Shown piece by piece: positions 1,202 through 7,066 of a stretch of 7,748 nt of DNA. The translations under genes were made by a program, and so were the position numbers. The stretch comes from Acidobacteriaceae bacterium. Lineage in GTDB: Bacteria > Acidobacteriota > Terriglobia > Terriglobales > Acidobacteriaceae. Below the pieces are notes generated by a model that did no database searches, was not told where the DNA came from, and saw only the letters and a program-made list of their open reading frames with translations. Where the stretch lies: positions 1 through 7,748 of the forward strand of contig JASHYS010000009.1 of assembly GCA_030042915.1 (NCBI GenBank), given 5' to 3'. Positions within the stretch are counted from its first letter, which is position 1, and each line of letters opens with the position of its first letter.

Positions 1202-1221
1202 GCCCGCACGACAGCCGGCAA
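1202..1221. repeat. Dispersed GC-rich repeat, core copy 1
   Basis: An exact 20-base match (GCCCGCACGACAGCCGGCAA) occurs here and at 6699-6718. 'GAGGAC' also precedes both copies, separated from the core by 6 extra bases here. The arms that form two hairpins in the 6685-6728 copy are missing, so this copy is degenerate. It lies upstream of the methyltransferase, while the other copy lies just upstream of the Cys-rich protein gene. I recognise this type from acidobacterial intergenic regions by memory only. Confidence 0.8.
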
Positions 1222-1251: not shown

Positions 1252-1280
1252 CCCCAGCGAGCAAAGACCGCTCGCCGGGG
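1252..1280 (+). repeat. 29-nt palindromic element, copy 1 (CCCCAGCGA family)
   Basis: An 11-base arm CCCCAGCGAGC (1252-1262), a 7-base loop AAAGACC, and the arm GCTCGCCGGGG (1270-1280) form a hairpin with one A/C mismatch at the fifth pair. The same architecture, with the mismatch in the same place, recurs at 6922-6950. Two 31-nt relatives lie inside the coding sequence at 6178-6253. A 13-base stretch starting at 1250 (CACCCCAGCGAGC) is identical to the minus-strand sequence at 6243-6255. Confidence 0.8.
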
Positions 1281-1492: not shown

Positions 1493-5663
<4,171 letters not shown>

Positions 5664-5665
5664 GG

Positions 5666-5698
5666 GGTTCGTGCGATCCCACCCTAACGGCAAAAACA
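5666..5698 (+). repeat. 33-nt dispersed repeat, copy 2 ('LTAKT' type)
   Basis: Matches 1334-1366 at 30 of 33 bases and begins within 3 bases of the ligA stop codon. Together with the sequence up to 5717 it forms the full palindrome listed as a possible terminator. The position, directly behind a gene and between convergent genes, is typical of REP-like elements in bacteria. Confidence 0.8.
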
Positions 5699-5717
5699 AA
5701 GGCGCCGTTAGGATGGG
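5678..5717. terminator. Long hairpin between convergent genes, possible bidirectional terminator
   Basis: The arm CCCACCCTAACGGC (5678-5691) pairs with GCCGTTAGGATGGG (5704-5717) over 14 positions with one mismatch, around a 12-base A-rich loop. It starts 14 bases after the ligA stop and ends 22 bases before the stop of the convergent small gene at 5740. No T-run follows on either strand, so it is not a classical intrinsic terminator. It may act instead as a transcript-end stabiliser or simply be a repeat insertion. Confidence 0.45.
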
Positions 5718-5739
5718 GCAACCGTCGGTGTGGTTCCGG

Positions 5740-5913: not shown

Positions 5914-6663
5914 TCAATGGCGCGCAGTTCGCGCTCGCTCCCGCTCCCACGCTTCAGCGCGCCAGCGCCGCGAGGCGTAACGGAGGGTGTCGGTGGGGAC
6001 GGATATGGTTTCGTGCGCTCGTGCCGGCATCATCACGAGCTCAGGCTGCGGACGAGATGCCGGCGCCTCCCCACTCCTGTGATCGCCTGCGGGCGAAGTT
6101 GGATCGCGAGGTTGGGGGGACGGGTGGTTGTTGGGATGGATTACCGGGACGCCCGACGACGGGTCGATTACCGGAGTCCCCAGCGAGTCCGCTCTTGGCT
6201 CATCGGGGTGCAGCGCAAGAACCCCCGATGAGGCTGCTTTTGGCTCGCTGGGGTGAAAAACCGTCACCGGCAAAACCGCGGGTACGACGACGGCTGTTGT
6301 CAGCAAACGCGCTGACGACGCCTCGTCTTCGACAAACGCCGCAGTGGACGTCAGGCTTGCATCGTTCTCGGGCGCAGCCGGCGGCGCAGGCAGGTTCCGA
6401 GCCGGTTCAGGCAACTCCATTTCCAGCTCGTCATTCTCGGCCGCACGCCGCGCACGCACCGCGATCGATTTAGCCATAAACTCGTCCACTAACTTATGAA
6501 GGCAAGTTTGGCCGCAGAGATGCTTGGACCCTGGGCGCAATCGATGGCGGGAGCTCCATCCGCTGACGCGGAGCTCGCCGCCCTGCTCGTAGGCCACAAA
6601 CCAGTGGTTGGTCTGCCGCTTTTCGGCAGCGCAGATATCGCACGAGATGGCCTGCCGGATCAC
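5914..6663 (-). CDS. Cys-rich, probably zinc-binding protein with disordered linker, unknown function
   Basis: Predicted 249-residue soluble protein. Residues 1-65 form a compact domain with a C8-x-x-C11 pair and a second pair C50/C54 ('HLCGQTCLHKL'), joined by 'TNHWFVAYEQGGELRVSGW' and a basic 'RHRLRPGSKH'. This pattern suggests one treble-clef or ribbon-like zinc site. Residues about 66-210 are low complexity, rich in Ala, Pro, Glu and Ser. They contain a 15-residue tandem repeat, 'HPSEPKAASSGVLAL' / 'HPDEPRADSLGTPVI', encoded by two palindromic DNA elements. The C-terminus (about 225-249) is Arg- and Glu-rich, probably helical ('RYASRRWRAEAWERERAR'). The start is the GTG at 6663, preceded by AGGGAGGT; the longer ORF to 6735 only adds translated repeat sequence. 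I recall similar N-terminal domains in Acidobacteriota hypothetical proteins. A nucleic-acid-binding or regulatory role is possible but unproven. Confidence 0.78.
   Translation of the reverse strand: MIRQAISCDICAAEKRQTNHWFVAYEQGGELRVSGWSSRHRLRPGSKHLCGQTCLHKLVDEFMAKSIAVRARRAAENDELEMELPEPARNLPAPPAAPENDASLTSTAAFVEDEASSARLLTTAVVVPAVLPVTVFHPSEPKAASSGVLALHPDEPRADSLGTPVIDPSSGVPVIHPNNHPSPQPRDPTSPAGDHRSGEAPASRPQPELVMMPARAHETISVPTDTLRYASRRWRAEAWERERARTARH
6178..6208 (+). repeat. 31-nt palindromic element, intragenic copy A
   Basis: Ends CCCCAGCGAG and CTCATCGGGG flank an 11-base variable centre. It lies inside the coding sequence of the Cys-rich protein and is read on the minus strand as 'HPDEPRADSLG'. 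Its ends are identical to those of copy B, which lies in the opposite orientation 14 bases away. Confidence 0.75.
6223..6253 (-). repeat. 31-nt palindromic element, intragenic copy B
   Basis: Same length and identical 10-base ends as copy A, in inverted orientation, read as 'HPSEPKAASSG' in the same protein. A and B together form nested perfect inverted repeats: outer 6178-6187 with 6244-6253, inner 6199-6208 with 6223-6232. The minus-strand 13-mer at 6243-6255 is identical to 1250-1262 in the intergenic copy. Confidence 0.75.
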
Positions 6664-6684: not shown

Positions 6685-6728
6685 GTGCGGGCGAGGACGC
6701 CCGCACGACAGCCGGCAAGGATGCCGGC
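6685..6728. repeat. Tandem double hairpin repeat (copy 2 of the GCCCGCACGACAGCCGGCAA family)
   Basis: Two perfect hairpins lie back to back. GTGCGGGC (6685-6692) pairs with GCCCGCAC (6699-6706) around GAGGAC. GCCGGC (6711-6716) pairs with GCCGGC (6723-6728) around AAGGAT. They are 4 bases apart. The element starts 22 bases upstream of the GTG start of the Cys-rich gene, so it probably lies in its promoter or 5' leader. The 20-mer 6699-6718 recurs exactly at 1202-1221. Confidence 0.8.
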
Positions 6729-6869: not shown

Positions 6870-6883
6870 GGGGCTAAAGCCCC
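6870..6883. repeat. GGGGC-TAAA-GCCCC mini-hairpin
   Basis: A 5-bp perfect stem with a 4-base loop, preceded by 'CCTCA'. The sequence GGGGCTAAAGCCCC is one I associate with dispersed repeats of Acidobacteriota (memory only). There is only one copy in this window. Confidence 0.5.
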
Positions 6884-6906
6884 CAATGTTTACGCAGCTT
6901 CTCACG

Positions 6907-6967
6907 GCACGGCTCAAGTCACCCCAGCGACCAAGAATCGGTCGCCGGGGGCCCCGATGAGCCGTGC
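6907..6967 (+). repeat. Two-tier inverted repeat containing the 29-nt palindrome copy 2
   Basis: The outer arms GCACGGCTCA (6907-6916) and TGAGCCGTGC (6958-6967) are perfectly complementary over 10 bp. Inside them is the 29-nt element 6922-6950: CCCCAGCGACC, loop AAGAATC, GGTCGCCGGGG, with one mismatch. The tiers are separated by 5 bases on the left and 7 on the right. It ends 113 bases upstream of the amidohydrolase ATG. CCCCGATGAGCC (6952-6963) is shared with the minus strand of intragenic copy A. Confidence 0.8.
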
Positions 6968-7066
6968 TCTTTCAAATCGGATTTATGCAACCAGCTCTGG
7001 CCTTAGAGTCTCTGTCGGCGTTCTAAGATGGAAGGGCAACATCCAGTTCCCCGTCTGCCAAAAACC

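What the first reader, a model, noticed from the sequence alone, without database searches (positions are those of the whole stretch)
6178..6253. Palindromic repeat elements inserted in frame inside a protein-coding gene
Two 31-nt elements with identical 10-base ends lie in inverted orientation, 14 bases apart, inside the Cys-rich protein gene. The same family occurs between genes at 1252-1280 and 6922-6950. Being palindromic, both intragenic copies are read as the related peptides HP[SD]EP[KR]A. The frame stays open through both copies, and they fall in the low-complexity linker, not the Cys domain. This resembles the Rickettsia palindromic elements that enter coding genes, a phenomenon I do not know to be described for this lineage. 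The element may be creating new protein sequence.
Basis: partly seen in the sequence, partly recalled or inferred. Interest (0 to 1): 0.72.

Follow-up and report, generated by a model that had tools for sequence, protein, structure and literature searches.

The report
Palindromic DNA inserts inside bacterial genes
Soil Acidobacteria of one genus carry a short palindromic DNA element that has landed, in frame, inside many ordinary protein genes, usually adding about 14 amino acids per copy while the gene stays readable.

Summary
The window's homologues are Terracidiphilus-like Acidobacteria. The intergenic hairpins at 1252-1280 and 6922-6950 belong to a dispersed family: a strict form occurs in 59 of 80 genomes of the genus (reversed-pattern control 0). 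In loci fetched around copies, 44 of 175 element places lie inside apparent genes with coding signal on both sides. At 24 places both flanks code strongly; all 24 keep the frame. Hosts, named from Pfam, include GltX, GatB, GlmS, NadA, TsaD, RnpA, Ddl and TrpD. GltX orthologues in the genus show clean 14-codon gaps. Two TrpDs identical over 383 residues differ by exactly one 14-residue copy. The window's own pair is an older, decayed case: a 2 x 15-residue block in 6 of the 120 closest homologues, in a predicted disordered linker. Its DNA match to the family is modest (E 0.001 and 0.0095); each copy alone no longer folds, the pair does. The process works like the Rickettsia/Wolbachia protein-coding palindromes and intragenic REPs. 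This family lacks GTAG/CGTC tags, and 0 of 30 Y1-transposase loci were flanked by it on both sides. Its mover is unknown.

The parts
5914..6663 (-). Host gene of the finding: 249-aa protein with a conserved Cys domain (CDIC...LCGQTC), a low-complexity linker and a conserved C-terminal stretch; no Pfam match
   Evidence: no Pfam hit at E<=0.001; model with low confidence overall, better in the N domain and the C-terminal helix
6211..6255 (-). Intragenic unit 1: 45 nt read as HPSEPKAASSGVLAL; 31-nt element at 6223-6253 (coding strand CCCCAGCGAG-CCAAAAGCAGC-CTCATCGGGG)
   Evidence: sequence; nhmmer 9.2 bits, E 0.0095 in the window, against a model of 125 other copies
6166..6210 (-). Intragenic unit 2: 45 nt read as HPDEPRADSLGTPVI; 31-nt element at 6178-6208 (coding strand CCCCGATGAG-CCAAGAGCGGA-CTCGCTGGGG)
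   Evidence: sequence; nhmmer 12.2 bits, E 0.001; orthologous copy in L001/L099 at 2935-2965
6178..6253 (-). 76-nt composite hairpin formed by the two copies together (outer arms pair, inner arms pair)
   Evidence: fold z -4.09, 0 of 200 shuffles as good; single copies do not fold better than shuffles
1252..1280 (+). Intergenic A-type element (29-nt core, CAAAGACCG loop)
   Evidence: fold z -3.80; nhmmer 33.9 bits
6922..6950 (+). Intergenic copy with outer arms GCACGGCTCA / TGAGCCGTGC around it (about 6907-6967)
   Evidence: fold z -3.91 alone and -4.92 for 6900-6970; nhmmer 34.5 bits

Best explanation
A dispersed palindromic repeat (CA-CCCC-[AG][AG][CT]GA[GC]-loop-[GC]TC[AG][CT][CT]-GGGG-[AG]CCCC, mostly 35 or 36 nt) has spread through Terracidiphilus-like genomes and is found between and inside genes. 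Shown: inside genes it adds a Pro/Ser/Asp/Gly-rich peptide, mostly in one reading phase (such as HPSDEDLSPGTP on one strand, GVPGDRSSSLGW on the other); where an empty site could be aligned closely (GltX, GatB) the insert is 14, sometimes 13, codons; copies then vary in number in 14-codon steps. Inferred: out-of-frame or badly placed insertions are removed by selection; those in turns or linkers persist because the peptide is a tolerated loop; later duplication or hairpin-templated copying alters copy number and arm sequence. The window's pair is an old, duplicated insertion of this kind in a disordered linker. How the element moves is not known; mobilisation in trans by an unidentified enzyme is my guess.
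For: Dispersed family: 23 places by pattern in the closest genome G001, reversed control 0. The strict form is in 59 of 80 genus genomes, control 0 in all 80, and in 9 of 297 phylum genomes, none of them among the 266 handles new to that call.

Intragenic: 44 of 175 places (42 ORFs) with coding signal on both sides, from 11 of the 16 genomes sampled. Both flanks strongly coding on one strand: 24 places, same frame in all 24, different frame 0; 23 of the 24 are among the 44 (one search printed 25 because one place counted on both strands). In 18 of 42 ORFs the element lies inside a single Pfam domain alignment (GltX, GatB, NadA, GlmS, RnpA, TrpD, E1 dehydrogenase, RibBA, RibF, LipB, DPPIV and others). 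In 4 more (Ddl, TsaD twice, thiolase) the domain matched in two stretches.

Empty sites: GltX 6 of 30 aligned loci have 14 extra codons and 24 have none there; GatB 7 of 30 have 14 or 13 extra codons at two sites. Homologues of TrpD, Ddl and the molybdopterin oxidoreductase often split at the insert.

Copy number: P0121 (3 copies in TrpD) and P0123 (2 copies) are identical at all 383 aligned residues and differ by one 14-residue gap. The same peptide sits in unrelated proteins (LeuRS, ABC transporter). Neighbour spacings under 150 nt: 42 nt in 11 of 14.

Reading phase: 33 of 44 in one phase (binomial p 1.9e-8, copies not fully independent). The window block lies within residues 97-163, pLDDT below 50.
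Against: The window's own copies match the family model weakly: 12.2 and 9.2 bits against about 34 for the intergenic ones, and 2 of 300 synonymous reshuffles of the gene score at least as well as the better copy. A peptide model of the family does not pick out P0001; P0003 and P0004 rank first of 120 but only at E 0.025 and 0.035. The pair is 31 nt, as is the G001 orthologue, against 28 or 29 nt for the other 172 of 175 places, and its spacing is 45, not 42. No target-site duplication was consistent. No cognate transposase was found. Elements are under-represented in genes: 44 of 175 places against 496 of 1038 random positions by the same criterion. Being open in all six frames is not special: 36% of shuffles of the B consensus are open too. 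Three of the 42 ORFs have no Pfam match and may not be genes.
Confidence: 0.86

Rival explanations
1. The block in the window's gene is just an old protein tandem repeat in a low-complexity linker, unrelated to the dispersed element; the DNA resemblance comes from codon use for HPxEPxA.
For: Weak nhmmer scores, and 2 of 300 synonymous reshuffles reach the top score; the peptide model is not significant for P0001; the linker is variable and Pro/Ala-rich.
Against: Both copies match the family pattern whose reversed control has 0 matches in 4.8 Mb of G001, though that pattern was written with these copies in view; exact 10-nt complementary arms, and pair folding at z -4.09; the block is absent from 114 of 120 homologues; the same family sits in frame in dozens of other genes of the genus.
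Confidence: 0.17
2. The elements are true REPs mobilised by a RAYT/TIRYT Y1 transposase of these genomes.
For: REP-like size, hairpin and composite arrays. All 8 genomes tested have Y1 transposases. Some copies continue as GGGGTGAC on the other strand, which fits the GGGGWSAS motif that PMC3733652 gives for TIRs of tyrosine-transposase loci, of which Acidobacteria form one group.
Against: 0 of 30 Y1-transposase loci are flanked by the element on both sides; 2 (L264, L268) hold one copy; several have other inverted repeats at both sides. Five of the 30 loci are cut short by contig ends, so the test is incomplete for them.
Confidence: 0.3
3. The in-gene copies are selected functional modules (for example regulatory hairpins in mRNA or binding loops) rather than tolerated insertions.
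For: The window block persists in 6 proteins, the other five 67-76% identical to P0001; the same place in GltX carries it in two divergent GltX copies; strong phase preference.
Against: Patchy presence among close relatives (6 of 30 GltX, 7 of 30 GatB loci); unrelated host proteins; depletion in genes; copy-number variation in TrpD.
Confidence: 0.12

Closest known systems
Rickettsia palindromic elements (RPE-1 to RPE-7) and Wolbachia palindromic elements
   Same: Dispersed palindromes found both between genes and in frame inside conserved genes, read as exposed extra peptide (passages of PMC2229807, and PMC3767692)
   Different: RPEs are described there as about 100-150 bp (some listed shorter, for example 84), in intracellular alphaproteobacteria; this one is 35 or 36 nt and adds about 42 bp, in Acidobacteria, with tandem 14-codon arrays. 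No sequence relation was sought.
GTAG- and CGTC-tagged REPs, including intragenic ones (Opitutus terrae, Thauera, R. conorii RPE-4/6, Xanthomonas)
   Same: Size, hairpin, composite arrays, insertion inside genes including RNA-related and repair genes (PMC3733652, section 15 and passages)
   Different: No constant GTAG or CGTC tag at the ends; the phyla named for the two superfamilies in the passages read do not include Acidobacteria; CCA lies at the 5' side of the core as I orient it, not as a 3' tail
ERIC/RU-1, RU-2, RU-3 and 107-bp Correia/NEMIS repeats with in-frame fusions
   Same: Small non-autonomous mobile sequences fused in frame to genes (passages of PMC2229807; abstract start of PMC2759123 in the listing)
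   Different: Larger (103-168 bp in the sources seen); here the added length is 13-15 codons per copy and often lies inside a domain

Membership tests
Protein-coding palindromic element (working definition: dispersed palindrome, also outside genes, in frame inside unrelated genes) | Several copies per genome, also outside genes | tested here: met
   23 places in G001 by pattern, control 0; 131 of 175 census places not classed as intragenic, many beside but not in coding frames
Protein-coding palindromic element (working definition: dispersed palindrome, also outside genes, in frame inside unrelated genes) | In-frame insertion with insert-free orthologues | tested here: met
   GltX 14-codon and GatB 14- or 13-codon gaps; 24 places same frame, 0 different frame
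Protein-coding palindromic element (working definition: dispersed palindrome, also outside genes, in frame inside unrelated genes) | The window's own pair belongs to the family | tested here: inconclusive
   E 0.001 and 0.0095 at DNA level with a synonymous control of 2 in 300; peptide model not significant; pattern matched. Judged likely.
Rickettsia RPE proper | Sequence of RPE-1 to RPE-7 | not tested
   No RPE sequence was fetched or compared; only lengths seen in papers
GTAG/CGTC REP | Unpaired GTAG or CGTC tag at one end | tested here: not met
   Flanks of 48 places, by eye: CCA before and [AG]CCCC after the core in most, no constant GTAG or CGTC
REP of a RAYT (REPtron) | Transposase gene flanked by the element | tested here: not met
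   0 of 30 Y1_Tnp loci in 8 genomes flanked on both sides; 2 with one copy; 5 of the 30 cut short
Mobile element by transposition | Target-site duplication or observed movement | tested here: inconclusive
   One GltX insert has TCA on both sides, five others do not; movement cannot be observed with these tools

The most novel reading that the evidence does not exclude
A mobile palindrome tuned to protein genes: a unit that enters as about 42 bp, 14 codons, encoding a tolerated loop in a preferred phase, so that an insertion and its later tandem steps keep the frame. The genus would then have an ongoing process that writes standard 14-residue loops into core enzymes, with hairpin-templated copying re-writing their arms (and codons), as the matched inner arms of the window's pair suggest.
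Probability: 0.3. Interest if true: 0.85.

Novelty: new variant of a known kind. Interest (0 to 1): 0.68.

Why it matters
In-frame palindromes inside core genes are best known from Rickettsiales (my recollection, and the papers). Here Acidobacteria with genomes held at 2.4-6.8 Mb carry the same kind of insertion in aminoacyl-tRNA synthetases, amidotransferases, RNA-processing and biosynthetic enzymes, with many insert-free and multi-copy orthologues in one genus, and with one copy-number step between otherwise identical proteins. That makes questions left open for Rickettsia testable: how such an element moves, why its reading phase is biased, how often a random loop is tolerated, and whether it ever becomes useful. 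It also warns that protein annotation and structure models of this genus contain repeat-derived loops.

Tried and rejected
Searching viral contigs for the gene found no relative. The window's own genome is not held, so the closest genome carrying the block, G001, served as centre. Dropped ideas: that the two window copies are inverted copies as wholes (their interiors are direct); that each copy is still a palindrome; that being open in six frames is a special adaptation (36% of shuffles are open, and 114 of 175 copies); that a RAYT is the cognate mobiliser (not supported); a peptide profile as independent proof for the window copies (failed). The structure model of the host protein is poor overall (pTM 0.32) and was not used for a fold search.

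Rows dropped and limits: the census regions were chosen because they hold the element. They cover every place that one search lists for 14 genus genomes except two places in G308 whose match contains N, the 21 listed of the 31 places of G312, the 23 places of G001, and the window's 4. Places in other genomes were not listed and not fetched. The regions (G009, G117) are not in the 175. 'Intragenic' rests on codon usage, not on annotation. The Pfam scan took all 42 intragenic ORFs. A hand sum of the table gives about 535 strict matches over the 80 genomes. In one search the domain could be read in 45 of the 51 scanned loci.

Full report
What was checked. The window (7748 bases) carries two 31-nt elements at 6178-6208 and 6223-6253 in a minus-strand gene, and related hairpins at 1252-1280 and 6922-6950. 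The host gene is 5914-6663 on the minus strand, 249 aa (P0001). It has a conserved Cys domain, a variable linker and a conserved C-terminal stretch. Pfam has no match for it. Where sources name organisms, homologues are Terracidiphilus or other Acidobacteria.

Homologues of the window's gene. The protein search listed 120 of 2212 hits. Six (P0001-P0006) carry the two-peptide block and 114 do not. Among the 51 loci of the genome scan, the domain could be read in 45; by eye only the closest one (L001, MAG JOPF070, handled later as G001) has the block. The six proteins share the same order of copies (HPSEPKAASSG-like, then HPDEPRAGSLG-like), so the duplication is older than their split (inference). 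The edges of the block are soft because the linker is variable. The AlphaFold2 model is weak overall (mean pLDDT 60, pTM 0.32). It gives pLDDT below 50 for residues 97-163, which includes both copies at 137-147 and 152-162.

The family. In G001 the pattern CCCCRRYGASN{8,12}STCRYYGGGG has 23 places, and the reversed control has none. Aligned with flanks, most copies show CCA before and ACCCC or GCCCC after the core. There is a 29-nt type with a loop like CAAAGAxCG and a 28-nt type like CCCCAGCGACGAAGACCTGTCGCTGGGG. Some copies are nested in or tandem with others. The 29-nt type with fixed arms is in 19 of 300 genomes of the family. A longer form CACCCC...GGGGRCCCC is in 59 of 80 genomes of the genus, with 0 control matches in all 80. 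It is in 9 of 297 genomes across the phylum; those 9 all bear handles from the earlier family search, and none of the 266 new handles has it.

Other host genes. In G001, 5 of the 23 places lie inside ORFs of recognisable proteins: Ddl, an amidase, TrpD, a molybdopterin oxidoreductase and the orthologue of the window's gene. Homologue searches found TrpD in 58 of 60 genomes, Ddl in 58 of 60 and the oxidoreductase in 96 of 100, and many matches split at the insert. In alignments of 20 loci each, the Ddl and TrpD inserts are missing or much shorter elsewhere, with one telling exception: G009 has three in-frame copies in TrpD (HPSDQKPPPGTPVL, then HPSDQKPSPGTPVL twice) where G001 has one. The oxidoreductase insert is longest in G001, and G009 has a partly similar longer linker there.

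Census. I fetched 138 regions around listed places and, with the G001 regions and the window, scored 175 element places in 979 kb. A place was called intragenic if the best open frame through it had codon-usage scores above 8 on both sides. This gave 44 places in 42 ORFs, from 11 of the 16 genomes sampled; the places in G178, G218, G302, G303, G307 and the window gave none. By the same test 496 of 1038 random positions in the same loci are intragenic, so elements are about two-fold depleted in genes. A test that does not require an open frame looked for places whose two flanks are both strongly coding on one strand: 24 places, all in the same frame, none in different frames (one search printed 25 because one place counted on both strands). 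Phase use is uneven: 33 of 44 in one phase. Pfam scans of the 42 ORFs put the element inside a single domain alignment in 18: molybdopterin oxidoreductase, amidase, TrpD, a glycoside hydrolase, RnpA, DPPIV, NadA, GltX, GlmS, asparaginase, GatB, two E1 dehydrogenases, a DEAD helicase, RibBA, a prolyl oligopeptidase, RibF and LipB. In 4 more (Ddl, two TsaD, thiolase) the domain matched in two stretches; the second stretch is not printed, so the split at the insert is inferred. Three ORFs had no Pfam match at the thresholds used. The other 17 lie between domains (for example RecQ, RNase R, RlmN, a MiaB/RimO-like protein) or outside the matched part. Protein names beyond the Pfam descriptions are my reading.

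Empty sites. GatB was found in 71 of 79 and GltX in 77 of 79 genus genomes; 30 loci of each were aligned. GltX has exactly 14 extra codons between LLRS and DG in 6 of 30, in two divergent GltX copies whose 3' junctions differ (L443 against L455, L456, L458, L460, L470); 24 have none there. GatB has 14 extra codons at one site (L413, L414) and 14 or 13 at a second (L418, L419, L427; L429, L435), 7 of 30 in all. One further GatB (L431) has 3 unrelated extra codons, and 22 have none. No constant target-site duplication was seen.

Copy number. Of 14 neighbour spacings under 150 nt in the fetched loci, 11 are 42 nt, and the others are 43 (a place without coding signal, L116), 87 (L343) and 107 (L284). 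The 42-nt pairs all lie in an open frame, though that of L474 is only 145 aa, at a contig end. The window pair, not in that count, is spaced 45. A protein search limited to the TrpD insert returned TrpDs with 3, 2, 1 or no copies, and a leucyl-tRNA synthetase fragment and an ABC transporter with two copies each. P0121 (3 copies) and P0123 (2 copies) are identical at 383 of 383 aligned residues with a single 14-residue gap; P0122 and P0124 differ from P0121 by 1 and 3 residues besides that gap.

The window's own pair. A model of 125 copies not classed as genic scores the intergenic window copies at 34.5 and 33.9 bits and the genic ones at 12.2 and 9.2 (E 0.001 and 0.0095). In 300 synonymous reshuffles of the gene, 2 reach 12.2. 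A peptide model does not recognise P0001; P0003 and P0004 rank first of 120 at E 0.025 and 0.035. Each copy alone folds no better than shuffles, but the pair folds at z -4.09. The 5' arm of the first copy and the 3' arm of the second are the family's arms. The two inner arms both differ from the family's common arms yet match each other perfectly, which is what hairpin-templated correction would leave (inference). I take the pair as an old, decayed insertion with probability about 0.8.

Mechanism. Shown: dispersal, in-frame presence, insert-free orthologues, 14-codon steps, phase bias, depletion in genes. Inferred: insertion followed by purging of harmful cases, tolerance as exposed loops, later duplication. 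Not shown: movement itself, the enzyme, and translation of the peptides. Y1 transposases occur in all 8 genomes tested, but 0 of the 30 loci are flanked on both sides by the element; 2 hold one copy, and 5 are cut short.

Known work. Di Nocera et al. 2013 (PMC3733652; abstract, passages and section 15 read) describe intragenic GTAG and CGTC REPs in several species and a group of tyrosine transposases in Acidobacteria; the parts read report no intragenic element there. Delihas (PMC2229807, passages) and the R. japonica paper (PMC3767692, passages) describe RPEs in genes. RepRanger (PMC12306157, passages) has Granulicella aggregans in a table of REP counts. The original papers of Ogata, Claverie and colleagues I know only through these; the one I asked for was not held. 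I found no paper reporting this family or in-gene palindromes in Acidobacteria in searches; apart from the four papers named I saw their listings only, and subscription journals are mostly missing from that library.

Verdict. The finding is real and general in its genus. It is a new variant of a known kind, with an unknown mover.

Noticed in passing
window 1202-1221 and 6699-6718: An identical 20-nt stretch GCCCGCACGACAGCCGGCAA occurs twice between genes; a related inverted repeat (CCGGCATCCTTGCCGG) lies on both sides of a Y1-transposase match in L261, so a separate REP-like family is probably present.
   Followed up: partly
window 5678-5719 and 1346-1369: CCCACCCTAACGGCAAAAACAAAGGCGCCGTTAGGATGGGG hairpin just after ligA, with a half copy at 1346: a further palindromic family.
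   Followed up: no
window 6870-6884: GGGGCTAAAGCCCCC resembles the inverted repeats (GGGCTTTAGCCCC) on both sides of a Y1-transposase match in L258.
   Followed up: no
window 6178-6253: Inner arms of the two genic copies (CTCATCGGGG / CCCCGATGAG) depart from the family's common arms but complement each other perfectly; CCCCGATGAGCC also occurs right after the intergenic element, at 6952.
   Followed up: partly
L343 (G306), about 3020-3218, minus strand: A 442-aa open frame holds an array of the element read in the PPQRQMPVAGDPG phase, at least five units long by eye.
   Followed up: no
L443 and L455, L456, L458, L460, L470: Two divergent GltX copies carry the insert at the same place (S before DG) with different 3' junctions: a hot spot, or transfer between copies.
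   Followed up: partly
L103, L105-L108, window 1252-1280: A-type copies sit after a common stretch like CCACCCCACGGACGAAGACCTGTCCCTCCA, which resembles the first half of a B-type copy: probably element inside element.
   Followed up: no
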